The notes under the pieces: model-generated
Told to the model about the DNA's origin: nothing
Seen by the model: only the letters and a program-made list of their open reading frames with translations
The model's database searches: none
Source: Brachycybe producta
Lineage: Eukaryota > Arthropoda > Diplopoda > Playtdesmida > Andrognathidae
Assembly (NCBI GenBank): GCA_036925085.1
Contig: JAUPFP010000019.1
Coordinates: forward strand, 61,001 to 125,000
DNA: 64,000 nucleotides
Direction: 5' to 3'
Shown here: piece by piece, positions 761-38,498 of the stretch
Numbering within the stretch: the first letter of the stretch is position 1
Layout of the letters: each line of letters opens with the position of its first letter
Program-made: the position numbers and the translations under genes

Positions 761-767
761 TATATAG

Positions 768-18802: not shown

Positions 18803-19027
18803 ATACCAGTGACAGGTAATTAGAAATCGGGACAAACAGAAGTTGGCTCCGCCTTTTTTATGACGAACGCAACCTTTCTAATTGGCTGGTTATGTAGTCT
18901 GACGTCACATGCTCCGCCCTTTTGAACGTTAAACCACACAACAAACCAATTAGAAGTTGCCAGTCGTCATAAAAAGGGCGGAGCCAATTTCTGTTTGTCC
19001 CGATTTCTAATTGCCTGTATACCAGTG
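18803..19027. mobile_element. Foldback MITE, subfamily A, with 9-bp TSD
   Basis: A perfect TSD ATACCAGTG lies at 18803-18811 and 19019-19027. The element (18812-19018, 207 bp) begins ACAGGTAATTAGAAATCGGG and ends CCCGATTTCTAATTGCCTGT. Inward from each end come AAGTTGGCTCCGCC, TTTTTATGACGAACGCAAC and CTAATTGG. The centre holds GTCTGACGTCACATGCTCCG. It has no coding capacity. The 92-codon minus frame at 18858-19136 covers this element and is not a gene. Confidence 0.93.
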
Positions 19028-19049
19028 TAGGGACGCTGATCAAGCGCCA

Positions 19050-19204
19050 AAAGGAAGTAAAACAGGCAAGTGTAGCCAGCACCACTGTAGATTTTCGTTT
19101 ACTCTGCCCTTTTATGAGCATCAGAATAAATATCAACCAATTAGAAATTGATGACGCTCATAAAAGGGCGAAGCAAACGAAAAGCTAGTGCTGACCAGTG
19201 CTAA
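19050..19204. mobile_element. Foldback MITE, divergent subfamily D
   Basis: Mirrored core words CTGCCCTTTTATGAGCATCA and TGACGCTCATAAAAGGGC, with CAACCAATTAGAAATTG between them, place it in the same family. The outer arms (ATTTTCGTTTACTC / GCAAACGAAAAGCTAG) differ from the other subfamilies. No 9-bp TSD could be assigned. Confidence 0.75.
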
Positions 19205-19397
19205 AGCCTCGTTTTCACGGCTATAGTAGCTGTCATAAAAGTTCGCGATAGTTCAACTCTCACGATAGCAACTGTCTACATGTCTTGAAGTAACGTGATA
19301 GTTCTGTCATGAAAGTGCCACATGCCAACCCAATTTTGAGAAATTCCCGTGAACTTCAGTTCTGGCTTATTGCTTATTGCTATACAAGAGATACACA

Positions 19398-19621
19398 CTT
19401 GGGAGAACAGGCAATTAGAAATCGGGACAAACAGAAGTTGGCTCCATCCTTTTTTACGACAAACGCAACTTCTAATTGGTTGGTTATGTAGACTTACGTC
19501 ACATGCTCCGCCCTTTTCAACGTCGAACCACACAACAAACCAATTAGAAGTTACCTGTCGTCATGAAAAGGGCGGTGCCAACTTCCGTTAGTCCCGATTT
19601 CTAATTGCCTGTCTTGGGAGA
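19398..19621. mobile_element. Foldback MITE, subfamily A, with 9-bp TSD
   Basis: A perfect TSD CTTGGGAGA lies at 19398-19406 and 19613-19621. The element (19407-19612, 206 bp) has termini ACAGGCAATTAGAAATCGGG and CCCGATTTCTAATTGCCTGT and aligns end to end with 18812-19018, including the asymmetrical CACACAACAAACCAATTAGA part. The three short frames (19276-19591) overlapping it are artefacts. Confidence 0.94.
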
Positions 19622-20710
19622 GGCTCTCAGAGGTCCCTTTTTCAAATTTTGTACACATATTTTGAGAACGTTCTCGACAACTAGTTTAAATTACAAAAGT
19701 GTAGATGATGTTATAATTTTCGAAATACGTACTATTTAAACAAAACGAAGGTAACGTGCACCCCTTGGCACATTTACATTCACCATAACCAGAGCATTAA
19801 ACGCCTGTCCCTTTCAATACACGGAAGCTAGGCGTTTCCGATTGCACCCTACTGGGTCCACACACACACCAATGCAAAAAAAATCTGAACCAAAAAAAAA
19901 ATCTAATCTCAAATGTGTCCATGAAGAAAACTAGTGCAAAACACGCACAAAATCACTCCCTGAATGTAATTTTTTTTATCAATGAATGATAATAATAAGA
20001 AATAAATTAACACGCTTGAAAGTAAAACTAAAAAAAAATTCTAGTTCAATGATAAAAAAACCGAGGTCCAACACGACAGAATAAATTCAGTTAAAAAGAC
20101 AGTTTTAAAAATACTTTTTCATCAATGAAAATTTAAAAAAAAATTCTATTAAAATTTTCTTTGAAGTAGAAAAAAGTCTCCTTGAATTTTTCTCAAGTGA
20201 ATGAACAAAATCAGTTAATAGTTTCTCATCGAAGAAACAACTTTTAATACGAAAAAAATTCCTATAGAAAATATTTTAAGTCACGTGTACCAATATGTCA
20301 GCTTAGAACAAATTAATGAAGCAGAAATCGATTATCCACTGCATTAACTTTCAGAAATGTTGAGTCAAATATGAATTAATTTTTTTTTCTCTCTCTTCAA
20401 TTTGTGAAATACTTTGGAATGTTGACTCGATTTTTTTAAAAAAATGCAAAATGCGCCTATTCATAAAAAGTCATTTACTTTTGATGTTCATTTTATAAAT
20501 ATAGTAATATTTAATTTTTTCTGATTAGAAATTTGCTATTAAGGTTGCTCTAACTTTGATATGACAGATTTTTTAAAAAAGAACTTTAAAAGATCTGAAA
20601 GTTTGTTGGAAATTTAAATAAAAACATTGTGGATTGAATTTTCGAAATGCAATCGAAGTGTTTTTTTTATACAAATAATTACCTGAGGATCATATTCTTG
20701 CATTGGGGTA
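19622..20710. other. No gene seen; spacer
   Basis: AT-rich with poly-A/T. A 27-base segment at 19823-19849 recurs inverted at 34064-34090 with one mismatch. Nothing else recognised. Confidence 0.5.
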
Positions 20711-21081
20711 GGGTTTATACTCCAAACTTTGCTAAGATTTGCAAGCTTAAATTAGTTCCCCAAAGCTTAGCTTGTTCATACAAACACATGGTCTTGCACG
20801 CTTCATCACTGCATTTTCTAACCTGCATTTTCTAACCCTATAAAACAAGATATACGAAATAATAGAAACCTTTCCCTTTCTGGAAGAAAAAAAGGTGACT
20901 TGTTCACCCCATTTGTGTATCCGTTTCATGGTTGGAGCTTTCAGTTGCTAAGCTTTGAAAAGTTGAACAATTTCAAAGCTAGCTTCATGCTCTGGCAAAG
21001 GCAAAAACCTGAAGCTCTGACGTCATTCTTGAAGCTTCACAGGCTGCTATGCCGCTTAGCAAGGGAGTATAAATAAACCAA
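20711..21081. mobile_element. ~370-bp MITE (GGTTTATACT family), copy 1
   Basis: Inverted ends GGTTTATACTCCAAACTTTG / CTTAGCAAGGGAGTATAAAT. The inside aligns in inverted orientation with 51561-51940 (CCCAAAGCTTAGCTTGTTCATA; GTTGAACAATTTCAAAGCT; GCTCTGACGTCATT). There is no coding capacity beyond short frames inside the repeat. Confidence 0.8.
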
Positions 21082-21487
21082 CCCTTGAAGCAGTAGCTGA
21101 AAATGAACATAGTGTTTAGCCATCCTCAGCTGCAACAAAACAGCTCAGCTTTTCAGTTCACATAAAGTTAGTTCCAAGCACCTCAAATGAATGTATTTTA
21201 TTACACAAGGTCGACATTATGTGGCCTTGATAAATTAATTATTTGCATGCAATACCGTTTTTACATTCCTATTGGTTGACGGATATCATGTGATGATGAC
21301 ATCACATGAGCTACAAATGAGCTGAAATATCTAAATACATTAGATATAAGCTGAAATGCGCTTTAAGCTTTCATTTGCTGCTTACATGTAAATGTAAGAG
21401 CTGATACAGGAGAAGCACAATATGGTACAATGTTTCTGCTTCAGCTTATAAAATTCTCATCTTCAGCTCACTGGTAAATGCACTCTT
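21082..21487. other. No gene seen; AGCT-rich spacer
   Basis: Many AGCTGA/CAGCTT words occur (about 21090-21480), possibly an old degenerate foldback, but no clear termini. Confidence 0.4.
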
Positions 21488-21605
21488 AATGGTGGGTTTA
21501 GTGGCGTGCTGAAAATGAAAATTTTGTAGCTGGAGATATCTGGCACCAACACACCATGGCACGACTTTTCATCTTCATCTTCCGCACTCCACTAAATCCA
21601 CCTTC
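21488..21605. mobile_element. ~118-bp mini-MITE
   Basis: TGGTGGGTTTAGTGGCGTGC near the left is inverted as GCACTCCACTAAATCCACC at the right. It directly abuts the truncated foldback that follows. Confidence 0.6.
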
Positions 21606-21607
21606 AC

Positions 21608-21778
21608 TGTATGATGAACGGCAACTTCTAATCGGTTGGTTATGTAGTCTGACGTTGAAAAGGGCGAAGCATGTGACGTCAGACTACATAACCAACCAAT
21701 TGAAAGTTGCGTTCGTCATAAAAAGGAGCCAAATAAACCAGGAGCCAACTTCTGTTTATCCCGTTTTCTAATTGCCTG
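21608..21778. mobile_element. Foldback MITE, subfamily A, left arm truncated
   Basis: The core is complete (GGCAACTTCTAATCGGTTGG, GTGACGTCAGACTACATAAC, GCGTTCGTCATAAAAAGG) and the right end CCCGTTTTCTAATTGCCTGT is intact. The left arm stops at TGATGAACGGCAAC, next to the mini-MITE, so the outer left ~40 bp are missing. Confidence 0.8.
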
Positions 21779-22212
21779 TAAAATTGCAAGGCACTATGCT
21801 ACTCCAGAAATTCTAATGTGGTGTGTAGACTTGAAAAAACTAAAAAAAAAAACATAATTAAGTAGCAGGTAGGTTTTTGATTGTTCAGTAAATTCTGCTT
21901 GGAAAATGTCCAGATTAGAACAGAACATGTTCGGGAACATTTTTAAGAACATGTTTGTTGTTCGCAACATGTTCCCAGTTGATAACCTCATAATGAATGT
22001 TTGGGGAAATGTTCCAAACTACTACGTGGGCCGAAAACGAACATCCTTTGATATGACAGACAAAAATCGACAACTGGTGGGTCGAGGCCGAACAGAACAA
22101 CGACCAAAATGTGTTATAGAGAAATGATCGAAAAAACCGTCCACACTGTTCACGAACAGTGTTCTGTTTGTTGTTCTTTTGATCTTTTCTATAGTTAGGC
22201 CGCGCCCTAATA

Positions 22213-22777
22213 AGAGGGTGAGTCAAAAATTCTCCGCACTCTGACTGTAGAATTTATTTTATTCAACTTTTAGAAAAGACAAAGTTCTACATCTTTTTTC
22301 GAAATAATCTCCTTGCTTTTCAATACCCTGTCCATTTGTCAACAAGCATTCGTATTCCCTTATTAAAAAATGTTTTAGGCTGAGCTGCGAGCCAGGAATG
22401 TACCACTGTCTTCACTTCTTCATCAGAGGTGAATCTTCGTCCTCGAAGGTCTGCTTTCAGGGGACCAAACAGGTGAGAGTCCGATGGAGCAAGATCAGGA
22501 CTGTAGGGAAGATGTGTTTAACACCTCAAAACAAAGTTTCTGCAGAGTGTCAACAGTGTGGGCAAAAGTGTGCGGACGTGCATTGTCATGCAAGATCACA
22601 ACGCCTTTGCATAGCATTCCTCTGCGTTTAATCCGAAGTTTAGGCTTCAGCTTTTCACTGTAACGAGCACTGTTGATTGTTGAACCTTTTTCCTGATAGT
22701 GTTCCCAATAATGGCTCTTGAGGCTTGAGCTCAAATCCCAGAAAACCAGTGTGCGGATAATTTTTGACTCACCCTAG
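22213..22777 (-). pseudogene. Internally deleted mariner with transposase C-terminal half
   Basis: The termini AGGGTGAGTCAAAAATT (left) and AATTTTTGACTCACCCT (right) form inverted repeats of roughly 28 bp and are flanked by TA, the mariner target. Read on the minus strand, the coding part starts within the catalytic domain (SHYWEHYQEKG, INSARY), continues to HDNARPH, which carries the second catalytic aspartate, and after a one-base insertion resumes as YSPDLAPSDSHLF with the third aspartate of the D34D triad, then RGRRFTSDEEV and a stop near the left end. The N-terminal HTH half is absent; a full mariner is about 1.3 kb and this copy is 565 bp. It is non-functional. The short frames at 22398-22734 are parts of it or its shadow. 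Confidence 0.92.
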
Positions 22778-22779
22778 TA

Positions 22780-25727
22780 TACATGTATTCCCATAACAGC
22801 TATCCCCATCCACCTCCAACCCTTATCATTTAAGATGAGAAACAAATAATTAACATGCTGATTCTAATTTCGGTGAATCTACTCAATTCATATTCTAAGT
22901 TCGTGTCGCGCGCGCACACATTGTTTATGCTAAAAGATGATACAATTAACAAGATCTACACTTTTCTAGAATCAATAGATGAAAAAGGTTGCTGTTATCT
23001 CATATGCAACAAGAGAACAGTCACCTTTGTCTAAAAATGCAAATCTCACAAAATGTCGAGTGGCAGAATGCACACTTAAGATCTGCATCAACGGTGGTGC
23101 TCAGGGCGACCTATGTCTTCCTAGACTACAGCAACATAATATGAAAACCTCAAACTTTTTATGTTTATCGCATTTGAGTTACCTTTATTAAAAAAAAAGC
23201 TACACAGAAAAAGAAATTCACAAAATTTCCAAAACACCAAACTCCTTAAAACTTATACAAAAAAACACACAACAGCCTAGGATATTATTAAAGTGTCTCC
23301 TCTTAACTACACACCTCCAGAAAAAAAATTCTATAACATTCATTTCAAGCGACAAAATAATTTCGTATTGTCTTTTTTTTGGTAGGTGTTCCAAATAGGT
23401 TTTCAAGACACATAAAACGAGGACAGAAACCCCCCATATAATAAGATGTCCCTCTTCGCCCTTTTTACTACATAATGAGACAATATATTTTCTTTGTTTT
23501 TTGTTTTTTTTTGGAATGTTACAAAATCGTTGTTGCTTCTTCTTATTCTTTTTCTATTGTCTAGACATTTTATTTGGTCCCCTTTTTTCTCTTTCTATGT
23601 TGAGCTGCTGCTGCTTCCCAATTACTTTTGTTTAGTGTCAGAAGAAGAAAATGAAAGAAATAAGACAGAAAAAGAAAAAAAAAGGCCCCAAACACATCGT
23701 CATTGCAACAAATGAAAGCCAGAAATTCCAACAGACAGCAAAAGTAAACTTTTCAGAGAGACATCAATTTCTATCATCATCATTATTCCATTATTACATG
23801 TAAAAGGGAAATAAAAGAGAAAATTGAAAAAAGAAAAGAAAAAGAAGCATCAAAGTGAATTCTTCATTTGTTTTATAAATTGCATTTTCATACATAAAAA
23901 AAAGACAACCGATTTTTATTTATATTATAGGCCCTAAAAGTTGTATTCAACCGTTTGTTTAATAGGAAAGGTTATAAGAAATAAAACTAAGAGTTTTAAG
24001 ATAAATGGAAAAATCATTATTGTAGCAAATAGATCACTACCTTACTTTTCCAATGAAATTCTCATGAGGTACTACAATATATTAAGATAATGTATTTCAT
24101 GATATTAGAATACTATTTGAATATTATGGTAGGTTTACACATCTAACATTCATTGCTAGCAGTAAGTTTCCAGTTTCAACAAGATAACTTGTATATACAA
24201 ACAGTGCAGACGAGATTACACGGTATCGCGATAGACACGTACACAAGCCCCATACCTAACCTAATATACTGGGTGTCACAAGTAGACCCCTCAGCCACCG
24301 CCGTTAGCCGAATTTTTTTCGTGCAGCCAAAATCCGCCGAATAATTTTATAGCTAGCTGTTATCCAGCCGCCGAAAATAATTTCAGCTTAGCCGAAAAAA
24401 GTTTAATAGTATTTAATAAAATTGCAATATTATATTTGGGAATCTCCTCTGGGTCAGTTGGACTTGAAAATTTGTTCTAGATAACTTTTATGCTACGGCC
24501 GTCGTTGAATATCAGTTGCATGTGTATGTGTGCTGTCATATAAATCACTCACGTAACCAAATTATTGCACACCTGAGGATTGCATATGTGCCTCTTGGCT
24601 TATAGTCCCTTTTTCCTTTTGTGCAAGTTGCATGACGGGTTTATTAGTAACAAGCGAAGCGCGCCACATAAATTAGCAACATTTATTCAGTATCGCACCT
24701 AACAAATAAACACGGTTAAAAGTTAATTGGTAACCGCATCCTGGCCACCTGAGCCAGTACGTGCCTGGCAACAAGTTACCGCTTTGGTCGCATTACTACT
24801 ACTCCTACTACAATGGTTTGTGTGTACTTCTCGTATTTTCAAACGCATAAAAAAGAGACAAACTCATCATTCTTTTGACATTTGCAAGTCATGTGTTTCA
24901 ACATTGGTACCAACCACAAACCGGAAACAAATGAGTGAGAAAGGGACATTAATGGACAAACTTGAGTTCAAGACAGAAGAAACAGAAGCAGTTTTTTTTC
25001 TGTCAAATTACTATTTCAACTCCACTCATGTTGAAATGAAAGCTTTTTTTTCTGTTTCCTCCTTCTTGTAACTCCTTCTTCAACTCACGTAATTTACTTT
25101 TACCACAACACAGAAAAGCTAATTTCTTGCTCTCTTTTGTTGTTGCTTTATAGATTAGTGTTCTTCTTTACAATTGTTTATGCACCAGTTAAAATGCAAA
25201 TACAAAAAAAACCTCCCTCCCCCCCCTCACAGTGTATTAAACATTCCACAAAACCATTTTGACAGAAAAAAATTGTTTATATAAAAAATGACAAGATGAA
25301 AGGTGGAAGGAAGAACAGAGCAGAGCATAAAGAAGAAGTTACAGTCACTCTCAAAAGTGGTTAACCAAAGAATTTTTCAATTACTTCAAAGCTTCCCCTT
25401 TCTTTTCTTTTTAAACTTGCGTATTGGTTCAAACATAAAATAACTGAATAAACAAGATAATAGTGTAATGCTTAAAAGACACTATAAAGTTACTACTTTG
25501 CAAAAATATATTTGGAATGTCAAATTTTATTGTTTGTAAAAAAAACATATTGAAAAAAATATAAAAATACAAGTTTTAAACATTCTTGTAGATCTGGTAC
25601 TAAACAACGTACAAATATGTTTTTTTGTTGTTTGTTTTTCCTGAATATGTTTACAGGGTATTTTTGTTTACTATAGATGTGTCAAAAGAAAACATGTTGC
25701 AAGTCACTCACTGGTCAAGTTGCAAAT
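22780..25727. other. No gene seen; ~2.9-kb spacer
   Basis: AT-rich with pyrimidine/purine runs (about 23490-23700). A segment at about 24624-24655 carries TGCAAGTTGCATGACGGG, matching inverted the word near 52727-52743. The 114-codon frame at 24727-25071 begins with a valine/leucine-rich stretch but shows no recognisable domain; I cannot support it as a gene. Confidence 0.5.
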
Positions 25728-26074
25728 ATTGGAACCAGTGGCGGATTTACCATTTTGCCGCCCCTAGGCAGCACCTGAAAACACATGGCCTATACTTTCT
25801 TAAAGTAATAGTTACTTTTGTATGCTTTTAACAATGGTAATGTCAACTGTTTTGTCGGAAGTGGTAGGGATTGCACTTCTCGGCCACCGTACTCTTGTTA
25901 CATCAATTACTCTTGCCAACCAAGTTATATTAGGCAGTTTATTGTTTTACAATACTTTTTTTTGTATCCAAAACGAATTTCCAAAAAAAAATGTTGCAAT
26001 TTGCCGCCCCAAAAATTTGCCGCCCTAGGCAGCTGCCTACTCTACCTATTGGTAAATCCGCCCCTGATTGGAAC
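25728..26074. mobile_element. 331-bp hAT MITE with perfect 8-bp TSD
   Basis: TSD ATTGGAAC lies at 25728-25735 and 26067-26074. The element (25736-26066) begins CAGTGGCGGATTTACCATTT and ends AATGG-like TTGGTAAATCCGCCCCTG, with inner inverted GCCGCCCCTAGGCAGC / GCCGCCCTAGGCAGCTGCC. CAG...CTG termini with 8-bp TSD identify hAT. The overlapping 68-135-codon frames at 25818-26398 are within or read through it. Confidence 0.94.
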
Positions 26075-27975
26075 TATGTCATTTCAACAGTGATACTGAT
26101 GATTAAGGCTCATTCCCATTACAATGTTTGCTACGACTGCAGCTACTACTTCGTTACTGCAAAATTACTGAAGTCATGGTTACTTCACTGCAGTTCACAC
26201 ATCATCACATCTACATTACAGTTAGCCGCCAATGAAAATTTTTTTCTTCTATTAGCCAATCATAAGGAGTATTATATATTTTGGGTTTTAAGAAAAATCA
26301 AACAAAAACAACATGGAAGGCAGTGCACATTTATTGCGTCGATAGACGCCATGTTGTTTTTTTGGGTAAACAAAAAAACTAGAAAACAAAAAACGTGAAA
26401 ATTCGAGAGTGTCCTCATTGGCTCATGTGGTTAATTTATTACTTCTCTACTGAAATGACCAACAAGTGTGGACTACAAAGGATGTTACATATATGGGAAA
26501 CGGACGGATGCTAAAATTATTCTGAAGGGTGGTGGGGGGGAGGAGAATAAAAAAGTTAGAACACACATTGTGGGAGTCCAGTTTTTTGTACATTATACAC
26601 TTGAGTTAATGTCATAAAACTGCCAGAAAAACAATAACTCACCTGCTAGTTAATTAAGATTATTTTTAAAGAATTAAATTACATTTTTTATAAATCGACC
26701 TAAAATGTACACCGAGGGGTCAGTAGGAGATAGATGCCATATTCTTACATTGTCCAATTTAATTTTTTTGTTTCATTTTAGCATCTTGTCTAGCTATTAA
26801 CCCATTTCTACTGTTGTTCATTTTAGTTCTATTTGAGCATAGCTTTTTTTTTAGCCTTTGTTTCAATACCTGCTCTTCTTCAGTGACATTATTATATTAT
26901 CATCATCATGTCATCTGCCTGCCTGCCTGATGCACCTGCTGTTTCATGCCATACGTTTAATTAAACTGAATTGAATAATATTTCTTATTAAAATACATCC
27001 TCCATTGTAACACAACAACCTAGATTATTACTTTCAGTCACAATGTTTCTCATACACTTTCATTGATTATTCTTTCCTGTGTGTAAAAGCATATGTCAAA
27101 AACATGAGGATTTGAATTATGCACGGCATCTATATATTATATACCCGGTACAGTATATGAATGTAGAACTTTGCAAATGCTCGTACAGGGTGTTAACAAA
27201 TCCTAGGAAAACCACGGAAAAATCGTTTTCTTGGAAATTGGATTAATCTATGATCTGAGACACTCCACTTATTTAACACTCCAGTAATTTTACTTAATAG
27301 TATCGAAACAACGTGTTTAAGGTTGCTGAAAAGTTATTCATTTTGCTTTTGTCCCCCGCCCCCTGGATGGCGCCAATGCAGTGACTCATACTATGCTCCA
27401 TAGGCGTTTTTGTAAAATTTGGAAGCAAAAACGACAAGCAAACGTGTTTTTTAGAAACAACATTACGAAAAATGCAAATTGTTTTCAAAACTAGAATCGT
27501 AAAAGATTATATTAAAACAATTTCATTACCATTATCTTAAAACAAACTTTTTTTAGCAGTTTGAAAATACCCCGTTATTTGGTTTTTCCATTGACATTTC
27601 ATGAAAAGCTTTTTAGCTATTCTAGTTTCTAAAACATGTTGAATTTTCTTTCATATTGTTTCCCCTGAAAAACGTTCGTTTCAAAAATCCCATTGATCCC
27701 ATTTGATGTTGACAGCAATTCGTTTTTGCATGGTGGAAGAAGGTGCATTTGAAAATACCATGCTTTCATGATACAGTGTAGTCGTCTCACTTCTATCAAT
27801 AGCAGCACTTACTAGCGAGCAAATGTCAGTTTAGCAAATCACTGCATGCCACCCATAATGTAAATAATAACCCTTGTATACGTCTCATTGATGCAATTGT
27901 CCTTTACACAAAATGAATGTCCATTTTACAAAATGAACATAAATTGGGCTGATGCAATACGCGAAATGGACATAT
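26075..27975. other. No gene seen; spacer
   Basis: AT-rich, with a G-run near 26535, an ATC/ATT-rich patch near 26890 and CTGC repeats near 26917. Nothing recognised. Confidence 0.5.
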
Positions 27976-28083
27976 CGCACCTCGGCTGCAAGAGTGGCAC
28001 AACTCAAAAAACCACTAGCAACTTTAAACTCATTTCCCCCCAAAAGTGTTCTTTTAGTTGTGCCACTCTTCCCGCTGAGGTGC
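27976..28083. mobile_element. Short MITE of the GGCACAACTC family
   Basis: The 108-bp foldback runs from CGCACCTCGGCTGCAAGAGT to ACTCTTCCCGCTGAGGTGCG, with inner GGCACAACTCAAAAAACCAC inverted as AGTGTTCTTTTAGTTGTGCC. It is a minimal version of 10022-10282. Confidence 0.8.
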
Positions 28084-30543
28084 GACATATACATGTACAT
28101 ACTGTATAGTATAATTTATAGCAATCATCATTTGCTCGCTAGTAATTATTTACATGAATGATTTCGAGTCGCTTTAAAACAAAATTGACCAACATTTTTC
28201 AAATTACTTCTCCTGAGCCAGATATATTCACAAAAAGAGCGAACAAGAGCGGGCGAGCCTTCTTGCTGGGTGCAGTGAGTCTGGTGAGTAGTGGTTAGCG
28301 AGCGAGCAAACATTCGCTCGCTCGTTTTAAAAAAATATCGGGTGGATGGCGGTACAATGGGCACATACAGTGTATATAAAAAATACTTCTTCGCGCTTAA
28401 TTAGTGTGGATTTTGATTATTGTATTGTTGCAGTGCAGTTCAGTTTTTCGCTTTTACTAGATTTGAGTGCTCGCTGTAAATGATGGCTCAACGGCGAACA
28501 GGAACATATTCTCCCTGGTATGGAGGAAAAGTGAGCATTTCAAGGAAATACGAGAAAATATCTGCGAGCATGAGCAAACGTATGCTCTTCTTGCTCGCGC
28601 TTTTGGTGTATATACCCAGCTTGACCCATTTTGTCGAAAATCGCAGTAATATAAAGCTGATGCTAAACGCAGCAACAGCCAAGCAACAATACTATAATTG
28701 TAGCAACAGTAGTTTCCCATTTGTTGCTAGCAACACGTATGATACATGTAGCGACTTTCATGAAACTACACCAAATTTTAACTTCCTTCTTGAAAGCAAC
28801 AACCAATAAAACGAAGATATTGTGGGACAAAGATTGGTGTCCTCCTTTGTCCTCCTGCTGCTTTAATTATAATGGCTATTAAATAATTCCTAATTGTGAA
28901 ATAAACAATCCTTATAAAATTCTATCAGGAACAATTTCCTTTCTGCTGACCACATTGTGTTGGGAGACTTTTTTTCTTCTTCTTCCTCTTCATCACATAA
29001 AATAGTTACGTGATTATAAAAACCGTTTTTTATTGGCTTTTGGCTGAAATGGTTGCTTGAAAATAAAACAAAGTTTTATTTGGAAATTCTGTTGCTTTCA
29101 ATTTGTAAGCAACAACTCCGTTTGTTGCTGGTTTGACAGATGTTTCAACTTTCATAAAACAATAGAGCAACATGCCTAAATGGCTTAAGGCCAGGAGGAA
29201 ATTAGGCAACCAATCAAGCTTGCAACCAGCAACAGTTCCTGGTGACACTAAACTAGCACCACCACTGCAGTTGCAGGCACCAAATTAGTAGTTTAGCAAC
29301 AATAGCAAGTGGATGTAGCCTCTGCTCTAAAGGAAGACAGTTTCTGTTTCAGCCTCCATTTTGTAAATGGTTGCTTGTAACTGGTTAAATTGGTTCCACA
29401 ATTTGAACTGGTGCGTTGCCTGTAACTAGCAAGCACTTTTTCTTGCAACCATTTTCTGACAATGTGGGTTTTCAAATGCAATCAATGGAGACAGTTCTCC
29501 AGTATCTAAAGTAAAATACTATCAACAGCAGAAGCAGCAGCCAAATTCTTATCAAGAAATGTAATATTGCAGGCAAATGTTGGCTTTTCCAGCTGAAGTG
29601 ATGAATGTACTGCGTTCTGAAATGCACCCACAGCTACTCAAATTAGAAAAAAAAAGGTCACTTCTGAAACACCATGTATATAAATGCCAGGAAATATCTC
29701 TAGAGATATATACAGTGTATATACTGTATGTATGTATAGACACTGAAGCAACCATAAAAAAATACCTTGCTGTTAAAAATTACATGTTGCCAGAATTTCA
29801 TTCTACCTTTAGCAGGTTGCCAACGTTACCACACAAACAATATTATATTCTACTAGTGACTCCACCCAAACATAACGCGTGCATTGCGCTTGCGCCTCTA
29901 CGTTAAAGCCACAGCCAAAAACCATCTTGTCATCATTTTGATTATTATTAAGTAAAGAGGGGGAGATTTCACACCATAAAAAAGAGAAGATAGTGAAAAT
30001 ATTTCGATTAGGTCGATATAAGAAAAAACTCAAGAGAGAGAGAAAAAAAAAAGAGGAAGAAGCGTAGAAGAAAAAAAAAAAAAATCCTGATAAAAAAAAA
30101 TTCAACTTTTCCAAGTGACTCTGACTTAGAGATTAGCTATCAAAATGATTACGACTTTAGATTCCCCCTTTTAGTTTTGAATAATGTCATTAAAGTTGAT
30201 GGGTGCAAAATCATATGAAATATGCAATAAAAAAATATCTGCGATGTCTCAGATATAAATAAGGTATATATATAAGCTGCAAATATTAATATTTGAACCT
30301 GATTTCAATATACAAAATATTAAAATGATTACATTTTATGTTCACGGAATAGAAGAAAGAAAAGAAAAACACGGAACATATATTAAACACCTTTTTTGAG
30401 TTACTATAGTGTGTATTTTCAACAGGCTTAGCTTTTTTTTAAACATAGGCAGCGATAGGAGCATTTTGTAAAGGCTGGTTTAGTAGCATGCCGAAGATTA
30501 ACATGCACTTTCTAGCTTGAGATGAAGTAATTTGTCATGTAAA
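28084..30543. other. No gene seen; palindrome and GCAAC-rich spacer
   Basis: A hairpin GCGAGCGAGCAAACATTCGC followed by TCGCTCG lies near 28299-28325. From about 28670 to 29470 the words GCAACA, TTGCTG and TTGCTT recur densely on both strands, suggesting decayed tandem or foldback sequence. Frames of 60-109 codons in this stretch have no domain I recognise. Purine-rich runs occur at 30025-30110. Confidence 0.45.
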
Positions 30544-30799
30544 ATTCATTCTTGTGATGGGCGATATCGGTATGTGTATCGGTATCGACGATTTGGATTT
30601 TTTCATTCAAAATAGTATCGATTTTTTAAAAATAATTTCTTTCATCTAATGATTATGCATTAGTTTCACAGCCAATGCATAATTTGCATTGTATTTAATA
30701 AAATTGCATAAACTATTTGACAAAGCACTTTTATTAGAATAAATGAAATGACAAAAATTATATTAAATAAAAAAACAACTTAAATGATTGAGAGATTCA

Positions 30800-30965
30800 G
30801 AAGATTCAGAATTTCAGTTTTTTTTTTATAAAGGAAGATCGTCATATCAGCATTTTTTGGGTTTAGGTGATTTCTCCTGGCCGAAATGATTTGTGCAGCT
30901 GATGAAAATATTTGTTTTGATGGAACAGACGTAGCTGGAGTCATAATTAATAATTTAATATTTCA
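30800..30965 (-). pseudogene. hAT transposase C-terminal dimerisation remnant
   Basis: Translating the minus strand from about 30960 gives a segment with SVPSKQIFSSAAQIISARR, then NHLNPKNADMTIFLYKK. This matches the hAT C-terminal dimerisation motif of the general form PATS-xPSER-xFS-AG...RRxxLxPxxVxxLxFL (family knowledge). It lies in the right place and orientation relative to the ends of the surrounding element. The upstream RNase H-like catalytic part is gone, so it is not functional. It lacks a start codon and is short. Confidence 0.88.
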
Positions 30966-31078
30966 TTTTTCTACTTACTAGCTATACTTTGCTAGAGGTG
31001 TCAACAAAAGTATGTAAAAATCATTCTATAATGATGTGGTTGACGTTCAACAAGCATAATAACCTGCATATTGACGAT

Positions 31079-31289
31079 GTAGAAAGTACAGGCATATGTA
31101 AACAGCTTCCAAATTTCTTTGGCTCCGCCTTTTTATGAGCATCATCAATTTCTAATTGGTTTGTTACAGGGTCTGTTGTCATATGCCCCGCCCCTTTTAT
31201 TTCTAACTGGTTGATATTTGGTCTGATGCTCATAAAAGGGTGGAGCCAAAGAAATTCTGAAACTGTCTACAAATGTCTGTGTAGAAAGT
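31079..31289. mobile_element. Foldback MITE, subfamily B, with 9-bp TSD (nested in hAT)
   Basis: Perfect TSD GTAGAAAGT at 31079-31087 and 31281-31289. The element (31088-31280, 193 bp) begins ACAGGCATATGTAAACAGCT and ends GAAACTGTCTACAAATGTCT-GT. The core has TTTGGCTCCGCCTTTTTATG, TTTCTAATTGGTTTGTTACA and its inverted partner GGGTGGAGCCAAAG. Insertion inside the hAT element gives a relative age: the foldback is younger. Confidence 0.93.
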
Positions 31290-31413
31290 TGACTAACTTG
31301 AGTTAAAAATTTCGATATTCGATATTTTAAAAAGTATGAATGATACTCGATATTTTAAAAAAATATCGATATATCAAAATATCGAATCGAAATCGCCCAT
31401 CACTAATTAATTC

Positions 31414-32209
31414 TCATCGTGAAGTTTGTTTGATCAAGATGACTTTTTTTTTTGGCTGAAACTAAAGTCTAAGGCTGGTTTCATAATTTCCCAGTTTTGC
31501 CAGTCTAGATGGGATGTCATTGGGGGACGGGGCAGGGGCATTTGCTCCTCTTGAATACAACCGTTTTATTGCAATTACTACAGTATGCGCACATTTTTTT
31601 TTCGAATTTCCTAAGCCTAAGCCTTTGTTTATTCTGTACACTTATATTAATTTCCAAACCATAACCAAATATATATTTTTTTGGAAATTTCTCATGATCA
31701 CTTGTGATCAGGAAATGAGATGGATTAATGAGACCAATGGACAAACAACAACAACAAAAAACCTCATGCTGTTTTTAAAGCTAACTCTTTTCCATCAATT
31801 TAAACACACACACACAGAAATAAAATATATTATGCAAAAGCTATATAAGTAAAGTTTTAAAAAAACCATTTGAAATTTGCATCCTCAAGGCTAAAAGCAA
31901 AAAAAAAACTAAAAGCAAAAACTTCTTATTCAATTTCTTCATCAATGTTAGAAGAATTTTATAAGATATAAAACAACACAAAAAGATTTCTTATTTTGTG
32001 TTGTATACAGTAGTAGCTAAGCTTTAACAGGAACATGGAATAAGAAGAAGAAGAAGAAAAAAAAAACACCTCAGGGTTATCATTGTGATGAAATGTTAAA
32101 TTCGATTGAAACCGGAAATTTAAACAAGGAAGAAGCTAAAATTGGGTTTCGTGGTTGGGATGCAAAGAAATAAGAAAGGGAAAAAAAAAAAGTCTTGCCT
32201 CTTTCCTTT
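31414..32209. other. No gene seen; spacer
   Basis: AT-rich with an AC run near 31806 and GAAGAAG repeats near 32043. The 112-codon frame at 31514-31852 shows no recognisable domain. Confidence 0.5.
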
Positions 32210-32992
32210 TTAGGCCTCGTTCACACCATGAAGTAATATGGTGCAACAAAGCAAGGTTACACTAATGTGCAGGTGCAAAGACAGGGGCGTAGCTAGGCAC
32301 CCGCAAGATCCGCAACTGCAAGGGGAAAACAACTGGGGGCTGCAACTAGCGCAGGAGGTTTGGGGGCGCAAAAAACGAAATGAAAGTTGACTTATTTTCA
32401 AAAAATAATTGAATAAATTAAGCGAGTGATTCCGAATCGCTCGCTTAAAAACTACATACTTGCACCAGTAAATCTTCATAGAGATCAATGGTCACAGTGG
32501 AACAATGGTAGGAATAGTCGGAAAAATAGTAGGAACAGTCGGAAGGTTGGGTTTAGTGAAATTAAGCTTGTTGCAGGGTGGTTGGAGGCGCAGCCTCCAG
32601 TTTTTAAAGAATTATTCTTATTAAATCAAATTAGTCCATTGTTAGACTGTTCCCTAATTTGATTAACGGGAAGAACGGTCGGAACAATGAACAAATTTGT
32701 TTTAATAATTCTTTAAAAACTGGGGGGGGGGCTGAGCTCCCCAGACCCCCTGCAATAAGCTTAATTTCCTAACCTTCCGACTGTTTCTGCTGTTATTCAG
32801 ACCTGTTCCGCCGTTCATCAAAATAGCACCCCCACCCAGGATGAGGACTATGTGGAGAGAAAGTTAAGAAGGCGCAAAGTTTTAAGTGGCCGGGGGGGGG
32901 GGCGCAACCAAGTCATAGCTACGCCACTGTGCAGAGAACAGAGACACTTTGAATTGTTGCTGCATTTACTTCATGGTGTGACACAGGCTTTA
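32210..32992. mobile_element. MITE of the TTCACAC-ended class, interrupted by a hAT
   Basis: TTA lies at both sides (32210-32212, 32990-32992). The ends GGCCTCGTTCACACCATGAA and TTCATGGTGTGACACAGGCT are inverted repeats. Removing the hAT insertion (32282-32929 plus one TSD) leaves an element of about 120 bp. A related left half, CATTCAAACCATGAAGCAAT, occurs near 58392. Confidence 0.82.
32274..32937. mobile_element. 648-bp hAT MITE with 8-bp TSD, itself holding a foldback
   Basis: TGCAAAGA (32274-32281) and TGCAGAGA (32930-32937) match at 7 of 8 bases. The ends are CAGGGGCGTAGCTAGGC and GTCATAGCTACGCCACTG, a classic hAT pattern. Inside, about 32505-32615 and 32700-32805 form inverted arms (GGAACAGTCGGAAGGTT / AACCTTCCGACTGTTTC; TAAAGAATTATT / AATAATTCTTTA), either a nested foldback or the element's own body. 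Confidence 0.9.
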
Positions 32993-34457
32993 TTTGTCAA
33001 CAAAAATACAAATTTATCGGAGGCATATGGCGTATATACAGGGTGGCTCAAATTGTACCATTTGTTTCCAAACCCCACGTCTCACAAACCAGATACTTTT
33101 TTTTTTTTTTGAAAGTTCAAATTTGAATCACCATATTAACATGGTTTTAAAGTGTTAACTCGTCTCTCGAACTCTGGATTATTCCGTCTTTCAAGTACAA
33201 AATAAAGAACAACTTGAATTTGTTTCAGAAACTAGAAAGGATGAGGGCATTTTCATGTTAACATTGTTTAAATTAATTTTATGTGAGCTTAAAAATGACC
33301 CAACTACAAGCTACAAGGAGAAATATATATTTTTTGCAAAGTTTTATTTTTGGCCATACTGTATAAAAATACATGCATATTCATTTTTCTTGCCTCCAGA
33401 TAAATATTAAAATAAAACATGAACAAAAAAAATTACCATTCAAAATTTCAGAAAAAAATTTTTTTTTCCCCCGTCTAATTTTCAATGAAAACAGGAAGAA
33501 AAAAATATATAATACAAACAAACTCTCAAAAGCTTTTAGATTCAAAGATATATTTTTTTTTGTTCCTTTCAAAAATTTACCTCAAGGGTTGGATTTTCTC
33601 TTAACACCTTTAGTGGTACTATCGTTAACACCAGAACTTCAGTTAACTCTGAAGTGAGGAGAAAAAAAACCCTCCTCGCTCTCGCCTAAACTACCACCTC
33701 AACTCTCTACCCCCACCCTCCCCAAACCCTTCAAGTTTTCAATACAAATCCAATAGTCAAACAAGTGGCATCTTGTAAAAGAAAACAGTTTTCTAATGGC
33801 ATAAAGCTTAACTGTGTTGTTTGATGCCTTGAGAGAGTTATATGTGACATTCCTATATGTATCTTTCTTTTTTTTTTTTTTGGTTGTTGTTTCAAACATA
33901 AACATACAAAACCCATTAAAAAATGCATTTTTCCATTGCTACATTATAAACAACATTCATATTTTTTCTCTTATATGCGTATATTTCGCATAGCTGATTT
34001 ATGTAAAAGTTGGAATGATATAAATCTAACTGCGAGCAACATTTTCAGCCACTCGTTACTTTTGGGTGCAATCGAAAACGCCTAGCTTCCTCGCATTGAT
34101 AGCAGCATTGTACAGTAGTTAAATTATAAGCATTATAAAAGCAAGTTTTCAATGCAATGCTTTTAGCATGTAAGTTCAAGCTCTGAATTGATGTGCGCCG
34201 CGTGAAAAATACAGCATGCAAATGCAACATAACGTTTGGGGCATTTCCATAAAAGAAATTAGCCGTCGGTACATAAAAATGTGCACGGAGAACAGTCAGT
34301 CGCACAGCTCTGATCTGTTTTTAGTTATGTTCGATTCAAACTAGCATGCTCACTTTAGTTAAGGATGGGTTTACATGTGCGCTTTGAGATCTCAAATTCA
34401 CGCTGTGAGCTGTGGGCAAAACACAGCGAATCTCTCTCATCGCGTGTATCGTGAATT
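32993..34457. other. No gene seen; isolated mariner-like end at 33035
   Basis: TATACAGGGTGGCTCAAATT at about 33034-33055 resembles a mariner terminus but no partner is found. The remainder is AT-rich and low complexity. A segment at 34064-34090 repeats 19823-19849 in inverted orientation. Confidence 0.45.
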
Positions 34458-34721
34458 TTAAAAATTCTTGAATCGTTGTGCTTTTCCAAGCTTTTTTGGA
34501 CTTCTGGGGGCCAGTTGCGTGCTCCTTAGGCATTTTTAGAGCTTTTAGAGCATTTAAATATTTTTAGATTTTTGGCCGTTTTTTTTAAAAAAAAGCCAAG
34601 TCTAGACACTTGGTTTTTCACACATTTTTTCCAATTAAAAAAATCTTGAATCCTTGTGCTTTTCCAAGCTTCTTGGGACTTCTGGGGCCAGTTTGACTGC
34701 TCCTGAGGCATTTTTAGAGCT
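34458..34721. repeat. Tandem duplication, ~85-bp blocks ~180 bp apart
   Basis: The block containing TTGTGCTTTTCCAAGCTT, GGACTTCTGGGG, CCAGTT, TGCTCCT and GGCATTTTTAGAGCTTTT occurs at 34458-34542 and 34638-34721 with few differences, separated by unrelated AT-rich sequence. Confidence 0.88.
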
Positions 34722-35601
34722 TTTAAAGCTTCAAGAGCTTTCTTTGCAAGTCTAAAGTCACAGCATGTTTACTTGTACCCAATAAATTCAAAATCTTCGC
34801 ATGATAAAACTAACCAAGGTTAAATTATATGTTTAGTTCCGTATGTTTGTGGTAATGGCATGTGGTGGAAAAACTCTTCTTAGTCATTAGCATGCAAGCC
34901 AACGAGAAAGAAGGGAGAGGAGGGGGGGGGGTTATTAATGTTACATGGTAGTATCTTTTGGTTGCCAGAAAATCCAAAAAAGCCACAATTCTTTCTTATC
35001 GCAACACCAGTAACACTACTCAAATGTGTCTTATATATGTATTTTCATGCGTAAAGATATAAAAAAAAAACTGAGCTCTTATAAAAAATACCTTGCTAGA
35101 AAAAAGAAATTATCTCAGCATGAGAAAAGAAACAGCCAAAGTGAAAATGTTATAGTAAGAAAAAGTTGCTAATCAATTGATTGATGGAGAAATAAATACA
35201 CAGTTTGACCACTTCATAAAAATGCCATTATTGATGTATTGTAATTTCAACCCATACTTTTACCAATACATAAGTCTATACATCTATGGGTAAAGATTGA
35301 ATAAAAAAAAAGCTAATGAAATTGTGCAAAGATCAAGGAAGACCAAAAACAACCTAAGTAGAACGATTTAAAACTAACATGGATTCCGTCAGGTAAAAGA
35401 CACTACTTGTAAACCCGTTGTGCACACAGTGTGCACGACGGGTTTACAAGTAGTAGTATATAAAAAAAACTACGCTTTTCAGTAAGGATTTTATCTTCTA
35501 CTGAGACATGTTTTTTTGTTTTTGGAACTACAGGAGTGTAAATTTTTTATTTTGTTAAAAAGTATGTTATTTAAGCTGCACTCATAACGGATCCTGGACA
35601 G
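34722..35601. other. No gene seen; contains a 53-base hairpin at ~35402-35454
   Basis: ACTACTTGTAAACCCGTTG and the following GTGCACAC pair with GTGTGCACGACGGGTTTACA and AGTAGT across a 1-base loop, giving 26-bp arms with one mismatch. A G-run lies near 34922. Otherwise AT-rich spacer. Confidence 0.6.
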
Positions 35602-35813
35602 GTCATTCGAACAGGCATCTGTAGACAGCTTCAGAATTTCTTTGGCTCCGCCTTTTTATGAGCATCAGACCAAATATCAACCAATTAGAAATAAAAAAAG
35701 GCGGGGCATGTGACACCAGACCCAGTAACAAACCAATTAGAAATTGATGACGCTCAAAAAAGGGCGGAGCCAAAGAAATTCTGAAGCTGTCTACAGATGC
35801 CTTTGTCATTCGA
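35602..35813. mobile_element. Foldback MITE, subfamily B, with 9-bp TSD
   Basis: Perfect TSD GTCATTCGA at 35602-35610 and 35805-35813. The element (35611-35804, 194 bp) starts ACAGGCATCTGTAGACAGCT and ends AGCTGTCTACAGATGCCTTT. The mirrored core contains TTTGGCTCCGCCTTTTTATG and GGGCGGAGCCAAAG with CAACCAATTAGAAAT and AACAAACCAATTAGAAATTG between. The target was a GGATCC...GGATCC inverted site. The 73-codon minus frame over it is an artefact. Confidence 0.95.
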
Positions 35814-36475
35814 GGATCCGTCAAATCTTGACAGATTAACAGGTCGCACTAGTAGCAACTGCAGTGTACAAAATTTAAGCTCTTTAGGTCATTATGGGGA
35901 AGTTGGTTAAAATACGAGAAATAGAAGTCAACGCAAACGGACAACGGTCATGTCAATTACAATAAAAGTTTGCAAAAAAACAATAACTATAAAGGTTACG
36001 GGGTAATAGTCGTGGGCCAAGTTCAGAAGTACCAGGTTCAGGCGTACATGTATATTTACCACGCTTACAAGACTCTTACTTTCGAGAAACAGGCCCGTGG
36101 TCCCGAACTGTTTGCAAACTGTTCTAGAATGGCTTCAGAGCTTGGTCTGTACGCGGCTTTAGAGCAGTCCAAATTACATTTCTGAGTAAGGAAATAATCA
36201 CTGACTTTACAAAAATAATAGTACAATAATTGAAAAACAATTAGAAAATAATTGTGAAGTAATTAGATTTCACACACAAAAAAAACAATGAATTATAATA
36301 ATTATAATTACAAATTTACAATTGTTTTTAAAGTAATGTGAATTACTGATTACTTAGAAAAGTAATATAATTATTAATTATAGTAATGGCAGATTGCTCT
36401 CCAACACTGGTTAAAAAACCAACATGTGATTATCTGAATAGATTTAGCTATTTTCCCCTTCCACGTAGGCCTGTA
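35814..36475. other. No gene seen; spacer
   Basis: The 71-codon plus frame at 35970-36185 has ordinary-looking composition (YKGYGVIVVGQVQKYQ) but I recognise no domain and see no convincing splice context, so I leave it uncalled. AATTAT-rich DNA follows. Confidence 0.4.
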
Positions 36476-36760
36476 TACAGCATATGTATATGTTACTTGT
36501 CAATCTGATGAATCAGTCAATCTGCAGATTGCCTAGAGAATCTGCAAAACAACCAGCCTGCTAGTGAATCTGCAAAACAACCAGCCTGCTAGTGAATCTG
36601 CAAAACAACCAGCCTGCTAGTGAATCTGTAAAATTCAACACCTAAAATGTATTGAAGTTTGCAGTGCAGATTCACTAGGAGTTTGGTAGTTTTGCAGATT
36701 GCCTAATCAATCTGCAGATTGACTGATTCCGTAGATTGACTACTTAACATATATACTGTA
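36476..36760. mobile_element. Foldback element with internal 28-bp tandem triplicate
   Basis: The outer arms are inverted: TACAGCATATGTATATGTTA... and ...TACTTAACATATATACTGTA. Then come AATCAGTCAATCTGCAGATT and its partner AATCTGCAGATTGACTGATT. The left arm's word GAATCTGCAAAAC with AACCAGCCTGCTAGT is expanded into three perfect 28-bp units (36538-36565, 36566-36593, 36594-36621); the right arm carries a single diverged equivalent. No coding capacity; TSD unclear. Confidence 0.85.
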
Positions 36761-37287
36761 AGCAAGTTTGTTTTGTTGATCTATAGAATAGAATCTTATG
36801 AATCCAACTACGATGGATTGGATAAGTTTAATTAACAATGTAATTTTTTAACAGCTTCAAAAATTTCCTTTTAAAAGTTACTTCCTTTAACCAACCACAT
36901 ATTAACCTCAAAGATGATGCATTGTACATGTGTACATGGTAATAAATTCATATGCATTTTAGGAAATAGAGGAAAATTCAATACCAAAGACCGCACAAGA
37001 AGCTAAAACCATAACCTTTTTTTATTATTATTATTATTATTATAATATGAAAGGTGGAGGGAGATGCAGCTTGAAATATTTATAAAGTTCAGCAAAACAG
37101 GATGGACCAGCAGCTGAGTCAAGATAATATAAAATGTCTAGCAGTTTTTTTTTCTTTTCAAGAACTTAAATTCATTGTAGAACAGATAAAAACCGATTGA
37201 CCAAACTAGCATATATAGTAGAGTTCTGGTAAATAAAATTATTAAGTTACTTCATGACAACAACAAAAAACAAGGGATTCAAGGAAC
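36761..37287. other. No gene seen; (TTA)n at about 37020-37042
   Basis: AT-rich spacer with a TTA triplet run. Nothing else. Confidence 0.5.
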
Positions 37288-38090
37288 CCTATAGACCTCC
37301 ATTGCTTTAATATATGCTTTCATATATCAAATAACCAACTTTTTTTCATTGTGCGCATGTGTACGCACATGTACACACGTGTGCGCATGTGTACGCACAT
37401 GTACACACGTGTGCGCATATGTATATAGATAATCACACATGTATGTACTCATGTACATGACATAGTTACATGTGATGCGCATGCGTCATTCATTTGTAAT
37501 AATACGGGTTTAAAATGAAAATACGTCACATGTATTCTAATATACAAAAATAATAACAGAACATAGAAAGGAACACCCCTCCTAAATAATAGAAAAGTCC
37601 CCCCTTTCGAATGCTACAACTGGAAAGAGGAAGAATCGAGATTTTTTTTTAAAAAATTACGATTTTGAAAAATCGAAATTTTATATATCGAATCGCTCTA
37701 AAATTCCAATTTTTTTCCAGTTTCATCGTCAGAATGTTTACATCATTTTAGGTCTGATGACATTTTATTGTAGGTGGCCCCGTTTTCGAGTTGTTCGACC
37801 CACTAAAAATTATGACCAAAAACTCAAAATTTGTTTCTAAAAAAATCATAAAAAAATAACCCCTGGGTAAAATTTTCTAATTTTTTGTCAGGAGCTTCAT
37901 ATTGACCCACGGAATCAAATAAAAAATACTGCATGTCTTTATCTCATTCCGTTCTTGAGTTGTTCGAGGAACTAAATCGGTTCCGGACACACACACACAC
38001 ACACATACATACACACACACAGACATCCTTTTTTTCCCCTTTTCTTGCATGATCCTATATACCTCCATTGCTCTTTAGAGCAATGGAGGT
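37288..38090. repeat. ~750-bp segment between 19-bp direct repeats, ending in a perfect palindrome
   Basis: CCTATAGACCTCCATTGCT (37288-37306) and CCTATATACCTCCATTGCT (38054-38072) are direct repeats with one mismatch. The second runs into a perfect 30-base palindrome (38061-38090) with 14-bp arms. The segment also holds the alternating tract at 37350-37427, the sentence-like AT-rich stretch with CCGTTCTTGAGTTGTTCGAG near 37948 and an AC run at 37988-38021. The direct repeats could be a TSD of a retroposed sequence or part of a foldback. Confidence 0.6.
37350..37427. repeat. 30-bp tandem repeat of strictly alternating purine-pyrimidine
   Basis: Two identical 30-bp units (37351-37380, 37381-37410; beginning GTGCGCATGTGTACGCACAT) and a partial third form about 78 bases without a break in purine-pyrimidine alternation, rich in GTGCGC, GTACAC and CGTGTG. 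Such tracts favour Z-DNA under negative supercoiling (established DNA chemistry). Confidence 0.92.
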
Positions 38091-38307
38091 CAAAAAGCCA
38101 CTAAAACATTGATTATTCTGCATTTTGAAAACTTTAAGAAAAAATTTTAAAAGTGTTTTAAAAACTAGAAGTGTCACTGAGTTACATAAACAAGGTTGCC
38201 ACCAAATTTCATGTCTGAACTTTATTGATATTTTCAGATTTTTCCAACCCAAAGTTGCCAAGTTAGATATTTTCCAGGTTTTTTTTTTCAAAACCAACTT
38301 CTGTATG

Positions 38308-38498
38308 CTGTAATAAACAGGCAAGTAGAAAACGGGATAAACAGACGTTTGCTCCACCCTTTTTATGACGAACGCAACTTCTAATTGGTTTGTTGTGACG
38401 TCAGACTACATAACCAACCAATTATAAGTTGCCATTCGCCACAAAAAAGCGGAGCAAACGTCTGTTTATCCCGTTTTCTAATTGCCTGTCTGTAATAA
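38308..38498. mobile_element. Foldback MITE, subfamily A (short), with 9-bp TSD
   Basis: Perfect TSD CTGTAATAA at 38308-38316 and 38490-38498. The element (38317-38489, 173 bp) starts ACAGGCAAGTAGAAAACGGG and ends CCCGTTTTCTAATTGCCTGT. The core reads CCTTTTTATGACGAACGCAA, CTAATTGGTTTGTTGTGACG, TCAGACTACATAACCAACCA. Slightly shorter than its relatives at 18812 and 19407, with the deletion in the centre. Confidence 0.95.

What the first reader, a model, noticed from the sequence alone, without database searches (positions are those of the whole stretch)
18803..38498. A foldback transposon family with ACAGGCA ends and perfect 9-bp target duplications, five proven insertions in one window
Seen directly: elements at 18812-19018, 19407-19612, 31088-31280, 35611-35804 and 38317-38489 are flanked by perfect 9-bp repeats ATACCAGTG, CTTGGGAGA, GTAGAAAGT, GTCATTCGA and CTGTAATAA. 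Four more relatives (572-715, 19050-19204, 21608-21778, 42996-43138) lack a readable TSD. Nine copies in 64 kb, all 140-210 bp, non-coding and nearly palindromic. A 9-bp TSD points to Mutator-like (MULE) or possibly Merlin transposases; no transposase is present here. I do not know a named family with these ends.
Basis: partly seen in the sequence, partly recalled or inferred. Interest (0 to 1): 0.85.

Follow-up and report, generated by a model that had tools for sequence, protein, structure and literature searches.

The report
Palindromic mini-transposon family, 9-bp duplications
A real and very abundant family of short hairpin-shaped mobile DNA pieces, most likely moved by a Mutator-type enzyme, sits in an unnamed large genome; it looks like a new family of a well-known kind, with an odd exchangeable block near its ends.

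Summary
BLAST with the nine copies finds nine blocks and no others at E <= 1e-6. All five stated 9-bp repeats are exact. One terminus type (A) has 8,593 hits with at most 1 mismatch in the 295-Mb genome, control 0; a second (B) has 2,291.

Of 94 two-ended copies in the held loci, 44 have a 9-bp target duplication, 7 an 8-bp one, one 11, one 12; 41 have none readable. Shuffled flanks give 0.7 in all. Some paralogous empty sites confirm 9 and 8 bp. The A consensus is a 205-bp palindrome.

The Merlin transposase profile has no candidate. Mutator (MULE) transposases are present. One 4,173-bp MULE, with a 796-codon open frame, has 70-bp inverted ends, 9-bp duplications and 17 closely spaced pairs of its termini, but its ends are ACTAGCG, not ACAGGCA. 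So: a MULE-type palindromic MITE family whose own transposase was not identified.

Unexpected: tip (1-7) and core (from 31) are conserved between A and B, but positions 8-30 are unrelated, and both ends of a copy carry the same type (95 of 95).

The parts
18812..19018 (+). A-type palindromic MITE, 207 bp; TSD ATACCAGTG at 18803-18811 and 19019-19027
19407..19612 (+). A-type palindromic MITE, 206 bp; TSD CTTGGGAGA at 19398-19406 and 19613-19621
31088..31280 (.). B-type palindromic MITE, 193 bp; TSD GTAGAAAGT at 31079-31087 and 31281-31289
35611..35804 (.). B-type palindromic MITE, 194 bp; TSD GTCATTCGA at 35602-35610 and 35805-35813
38317..38489 (.). A-type MITE with shortened centre, 173 bp; TSD CTGTAATAA at 38308-38316 and 38490-38498
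573..714 (.). C-type MITE inside a larger dispersed repeat (284-765); no exact TSD, but 9 bp extra against the empty paralog L008
42996..43138 (.). C-type MITE in a second copy of the same larger repeat (about 42705-43188)
19050..19204 (.). degraded copy of the family, no readable TSD
21608..21779 (.). A-type copy truncated at its left end, so no TSD expected

Best explanation
A family of non-autonomous, palindromic miniature transposons (MITEs) moved by a Mutator-like (MULE) transposase. Shown: small uniform non-coding copies, inverted arms nearly the full length, 9-bp (sometimes 8-bp) duplications, insertion into other repeats and into each other, thousands of termini. Inferred: a MULE transposase supplied in trans binds the arms, cuts the element out and inserts it at staggered 9-bp cuts. 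The transposase that did this was not identified; it may be lost, rare, or share only the tip and core of the arms.
For: Nine copies in the window; 8,593 A and 2,291 B termini genome-wide, controls 0. TSDs in 94 copies: 9 bp in 44, 8 bp in 7, 11 in 1, 12 in 1; 33 elements at 32 further hits, not chosen for TSDs, gave 16 with at most 1 mismatch at 9 bp against 0.5 expected (these loci are also among those). Clean 9-bp gaps in 4 and clean 8-bp gaps in 2 of 13 empty-site comparisons that I picked from the candidate rows. No Merlin candidate; 21 MULE matches. A 4,173-bp MULE in the same genome has 70-bp inverted ends, an exact 9-bp TSD at one copy and one with 1 mismatch at the other, and its terminus occurs in 17 pairs 275-329 bp apart. 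Palindromic elements with its core but another sub-terminal block (L004, L035, L050; a partial one in L120) show the same tip/block/core layout. Printed MULE TSD range 8-11 bp (PMC6446971, passages).
Against: No convincing longer element with ACAGGCA ends and a transposase was found: three searches built to find one gave MITE variants, singletons or chance-level hits. 41 of 94 copies have no readable TSD; 7 of 13 empty-site comparisons are not clean. TSD length and shape are not proof of a superfamily; AcademH also makes 9-10 bp TSDs (PMC10045372, passage) and no search for it was answered. The MULE with resolved ends shares no arm sequence with this family beyond chance-level matches.
Confidence: 0.8

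Rival explanations
1. The family is mobilised by another superfamily with about 9-bp staggered cuts, AcademH being the most plausible.
For: AcademH makes 9- or 10-bp TSDs (PMC10045372, passage). No convincing MULE with these tips was found.
Against: Minor TSD lengths here are 8, not 10 (7 copies against 0). A MULE with 9-bp TSDs and palindromic relatives of like layout exists in this genome. No Academ transposase search was answered, so it was not tested.
Confidence: 0.1
2. A Merlin-derived MITE family.
For: Merlin TSDs are 8-9 bp (recalled, no call).
Against: The Merlin transposase profile PF12762 has 0 candidates in the whole genome, though introns could hide one.
Confidence: 0.03
3. Not mobile: a dispersed palindromic repeat spread mainly inside larger repeats or by segmental duplication.
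For: The two C-type window copies and L073 share one larger repeat; 41 of 94 copies lack a TSD.
Against: 53 of 94 copies have their own TSDs, with varied sequences; nested insertion of A into B with a 9-bp gap (L128).
Confidence: 0.03

Closest known systems
Muta1 and its derivatives, MULEs of Aedes aegypti (PMC5225508, passages)
   Same: 8- or 9-bp TSDs; many non-autonomous derivatives sharing the ends
   Different: Muta1 has 145-bp TIRs with 12-bp tandem repeats and an active transposase; its derivatives carry varied internal sequence; ours are uniform palindromes with no identified autonomous partner
Tm1 Mutator/Foldback family of root-knot nematodes (PMC3169594, abstract, section 9 and part 1 of section 11)
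   Same: foldback-like arms, 9-bp TSDs, MITE-like members most numerous
   Different: Tm1 has asymmetric 7-bp tips and repeated ~14-bp motifs, low copy number and one transposase-bearing element; ours has symmetric tips and thousands of termini
The 4.17-kb MULE of this same genome (C13:545813-549985 and C28:2720786-2724979)
   Same: tip AC..GC, conserved core behind a variable block in its palindromic relatives, 9-bp TSD, short-spaced terminus pairs
   Different: tip ACTAGCG not ACAGGCA; no alignable arm sequence beyond chance-level matches
Spectre/Ghost MULEs of invertebrates (PMC6446971, passages)
   Same: MULE transposase with a C2H2 finger (here over Pfam's cut-off only in L048, below it in L060 and L051, by eye in L041); Spectre has 8-bp TSD and 74-bp TIRs
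   Different: Spectre's finger and transposase are two frames; no palindromic MITE family in the passages read

Membership tests
MITE | short, non-coding, uniform length, high copy number | tested here: met
   64 of 80 A copies are 205-209 bp; 8,593 A termini
MITE | terminal inverted repeats and target site duplication | tested here: met
   TSD readable in 53 of 94
MITE | derived from or sharing ends with an autonomous element | tested here: inconclusive
   none found convincingly; L060 has a MULE gene between two C-type ends but no TSD; searches not exhaustive
Mutator-like (MULE) superfamily | TSD of 8-11 bp, mostly 9 | tested here: met
   52 of 53 readable TSDs are 8, 9 or 11 bp, one is 12; range from PMC6446971
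Mutator-like (MULE) superfamily | long TIRs | tested here: met
   arms of about 92 bp in the A consensus
Mutator-like (MULE) superfamily | MULE transposase encoded between the same ends | tested here: inconclusive
   21 MULE hits; both ends with TSD resolved for one family only, ACTAGCG
Merlin | DDE_Tnp_IS1595 transposase in the genome | tested here: not met
   0 candidates; search ignores introns
AcademH | Academ transposase with helicase, 9-10 bp TSD | not tested
   profile PF20231 (its link to Academ is recalled, unverified) did not complete; no 10-bp TSD seen
Foldback elements | long arms built of internal tandem subrepeats | tested here: inconclusive
   the A consensus folds back fully and the CTCCGCCCTTTT module recurs in its centre (by eye), but no tandem array was seen

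The most novel reading that the evidence does not exclude
The ends of these elements are modular: a fixed 7-bp tip, an exchangeable ~23-bp recognition block, and a fixed core. The block has been replaced as a unit at both arms at once, giving subfamilies served by different transposases while keeping the same core; arm-to-arm copying through the hairpin keeps the two ends matched. The same layout in the ACTAGCG MULE and its palindromic relatives in this genome would make it a general way for MULE-type elements to change transposase.
Probability: 0.25. Interest if true: 0.6.

Novelty: new member of a known kind. Interest (0 to 1): 0.35.

Why it matters
The family makes up about 2% of the DNA sampled, so it shapes this genome's insertions and palindromes, and perhaps its regulatory sites and small RNAs. 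The tip/block/core layout offers a testable view of how non-autonomous elements might switch between transposases, since the block can be swapped in an excision assay.

Tried and rejected
Autonomous partner, three ways. (1) All exact A termini whose positions 31-35 differ from the MITE: 40 hits, judged from their 35-bp strings as mostly MITEs with small indels; the five oddest were fetched (1 kb each) and are truncated, shortened or rearranged copies. One, L119, is a 538-bp copy with about 320 bp of foreign DNA and an 8-bp TSD. (2) Hits of the A core whose continuation differs: 208, the first 100 listed; indel variants and singletons, no repeated new interior. (3) Tip plus core with a new block: 5 against 4 in the reversed control.

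MULE loci as partners. L060: its MULE gene lies between two C-type ends in the right orientation (370-403 and 3979-4012, 31 of 34 bases equal), the nearest thing to a partner seen; but the 9-bp flanks ATTCAGGAT and GAATTTTGC match at 0 of 9 positions, by my reading the sister copy L061 lacks both ends, and the right end runs on into the dispersed repeat of the window's C copies (97.5% over 81 bp), so I read these as chance neighbours. L048's neighbour is a MITE with its own TSD GTTATAAAA; L046's is a composite A block whose outer ends carry TSD ACAGAAGTT. L045's 6.4 kb shows no convincing TIR. The palindromic MULE with 31-bp arrays was followed outwards on C38 without reaching an end. Ends of L046, L048, L049 and L050-L052 were not resolved.

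L009 (a lone 58-bp arm) looked like the TIR of a long element but abuts another repeat. Species not identified; the COX1 profile search did not complete. The identity line is wrong (gap columns counted); one search replaces it. One search included low-scoring rows; for I dropped those below 40 (5 of 13 B, 6 of 10 C, 4 of 5 D). One search failed by a script error and was repeated. Words of the element's sequence in the paper library: 0 papers; ACAGGCA with four other terms gave three papers, unrelated by title. Paper searches on foldback, palindromic and Phantom elements listed no family with these ends in what I saw of them; Repbase and Dfam could not be consulted.
Full report
Observation. The five 9-bp repeats are exact, and a BLAST with the nine copies finds no tenth block at E <= 1e-6. 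The window is G000:C19:61001-125000 of a 295-Mb genome in 442 contigs, species not named.

Size of the family. The 22-bp A terminus has 4,256 forward and 4,337 reverse hits with at most one mismatch; the reversed-pattern control has none. The 22-bp B terminus has 1,148 and 1,143, control none. As a copy has two ends, this means at least some 4,000 A and 1,100 B copy equivalents. In 46 held loci fetched for other reasons (144,070 bp, with some near-duplicate loci among them) I found 20 blocks and 2.1% of the sequence, close to the window's 2.5%; scaled up, that is roughly 40,000 fragments, a coarse figure.

Duplications. In 94 two-ended copies (120-240 bp) from the window and all loci held at that time, 29 have an exact 9-bp repeat, 15 a 9-bp repeat with one mismatch, 5 an exact 8-bp one, 2 an 8-bp one with one mismatch, one 11 bp and one 12 bp; 41 show none. 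Shuffling the right flanks gives 0.7 in all categories together. A first look at 46 pairs had given 17 exact and 23 with at most one mismatch at 9 bp. A separately fetched set of 33 elements (32 further hits) gave 9 exact, 16 with at most one and 19 with at most two mismatches at 9 bp, against 0.5 (at most one) and 0.7 (at most two) expected; these loci are also among those. The 29 exact targets lean to G-T-T at the start and A-A at positions 7-8, a mild symmetric preference that I did not test. By type, TSDs were read for 50 of 80 A, 2 of 8 B, 0 of 5 C and 1 of 1 D.

Empty sites. From the candidate rows I picked 13 comparisons with paralogous repeats that lack the element. Four show a clean 9-bp excess (window 573-714 and L073 against L008, which are one and the same old insertion; L089 against L076; L128 against a B copy in the window), two a clean 8-bp excess (L108 against L018 and against window 29225-29330), and seven are not clean. 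L088 is an A copy whose TSD TCTGTAGAC equals positions 8-16 of the B element. So 8 and 9 bp are both real, and the C-type copies, which look as if they had no TSD, also carry 9 extra bases.

Anatomy. The A consensus (30 copies) is 205 bp and folds end to end: arms of about 92 bp with a 20-nt loop, -142.9 kcal/mol as RNA. Eighty A copies average 95.8% identity to it, gaps left out, a sample biased towards close copies. B (8 copies), C (4) and D (a single copy) fold back too, less evenly inside. Between A and B the first 7 bp are identical, positions 8-30 match at 7 of 23 (shuffle mean 5.7, P 0.33), and of 79 aligned core positions 66 match; A and C share 6 of 23 in the block, B and C 16 of 23. 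The A, B and C consensuses each have identical first 30 bp on both arms. Of 95 copies whose two ends could be typed, 81 are A-A, 8 B-B, 5 C-C, 1 D-D and none mixed; within A, variants of the block do mix, 13 of 81. On contig 1, pairing 100 listed exact A termini with 56 of the 100 listed exact B termini gives 14 A-A, 10 B-B and no A-B. The C copies are not all independent, and only 8 B copies are in the 95, which limits this rule.

Which transposase. Merlin: the profile PF12762 has no candidate in the genome. MULE: PF10551 gives 21 matches from 31 candidates, many in open frames of about 690-1,090 codons. C2H2 fingers: over Pfam's cut-off only in L048, below it in L060 and L051, by eye in L041. 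One group (L044, L045, L047) is split into pieces, with a RING-like stretch in L045 (by eye). One family could be delimited: two copies, 99.5% identical, 4,173 and 4,194 bp, 70-bp TIRs at 91% identity, a 796-codon open frame, a 21-bp tandem array behind the gene, and 9-bp TSDs, AAAGAAGAT exact and CCTTTTATC/CCTATTATC. Its 21-bp terminus has 52 hits with at most two mismatches: by position the two full elements, 17 pairs 275-329 bp apart, three pairs 217-232 bp apart with another terminus variant, and 8 unpaired (the pairing is my reading of the list, and these short elements were not fetched). Palindromic elements with its core (arm positions from about 23 to 70) but a different sub-terminal block lie in L004, L035 and L050, with a partial one in L120. 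Thus this genome holds a MULE that makes 9-bp TSDs and has MITE-like relatives with the same tip/block/core layout. It does not share arm sequence with the ACAGGCA family, so it is a model and not the partner.

Search for the partner. None was found convincingly. Each search had limited power: pass chances for a random interior or block of about 24%, 42% (first 100 of 208 listed) and 13%; the first two require an A-type terminus or core, the third a GGCA tip and a TTGGCTC core. A single-copy partner could have been missed. The one doubtful case is L060, a MULE gene (736-aa frame) between two C-type ends without TSD, discussed under Tried and rejected.

How it works, most likely. Shown: inverted arms, staggered-cut duplications, nested insertion, high copy number. 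Inferred: MULE transposase in trans, cut and paste, loss or rarity of the source element. The role of the 8-30 block as recognition site is a guess from its position and its replacement as a unit. The core holds CCAAT, GC-box-like and TGACGTCA motifs (recalled motif names, seen by eye, not tested).

Known relatives. MULE TSDs are 8-11 bp (PMC6446971, passages); the mosquito Muta1 makes 8 or 9 bp with no apparent sequence preference (PMC5225508, passages); Tm1 of nematodes is a Mutator/foldback family with 9-bp TSDs and MITE-like members (PMC3169594, abstract, section 9 and part 1 of section 11). I found no printed family with these ends in the searches; Repbase and Dfam were not available, so an existing entry is possible. 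Verdict: real, a new member of a known kind as far as could be seen, with one unusual feature worth testing.

Noticed in passing
L053-L059, L062, L063, L084 (contigs C2, C5, C38, C89): A MULE present as near-identical copies (99.5-100%), on C2, C5 and C38 as inverted pairs a few kb apart; on C38 an arm runs into more than 3 kb of 31-bp tandem repeats. Looks like a young Rehavkus-like foldback MULE; its ends were not reached.
   Followed up: partly
G000:C13:545813-549985 and C28:2720786-2724979: MULE with a 796-codon open frame in a 4.17-kb element with 9-bp TSDs; its terminus occurs in 17 further pairs 275-329 bp apart.
   Followed up: yes
L032:1312-1649: A composite A copy sits at the centre of a roughly 60-bp inverted repeat of flanking DNA, as if a fold-back duplication had formed around the hairpin.
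   Followed up: no
L126:509-701: A full-length U2 spliceosomal RNA match (RF00004, 164 bits) between two A copies.
   Followed up: partly
L117:160-235: Another near-perfect hairpin sequence (ACTATATACAATGC...GCATTGTATATAGT) directly after a 26-bp fragment of an A terminus (by eye).
   Followed up: no
window 284-765 and about 42705-43188; L008:1204-1268; L060 from 3974; L073: A dispersed repeat carrying the C-type MITE; in L060 its 81 shared bases stand beside what reads like the end of a Penelope-type endonuclease frame (by eye, not searched).
   Followed up: partly
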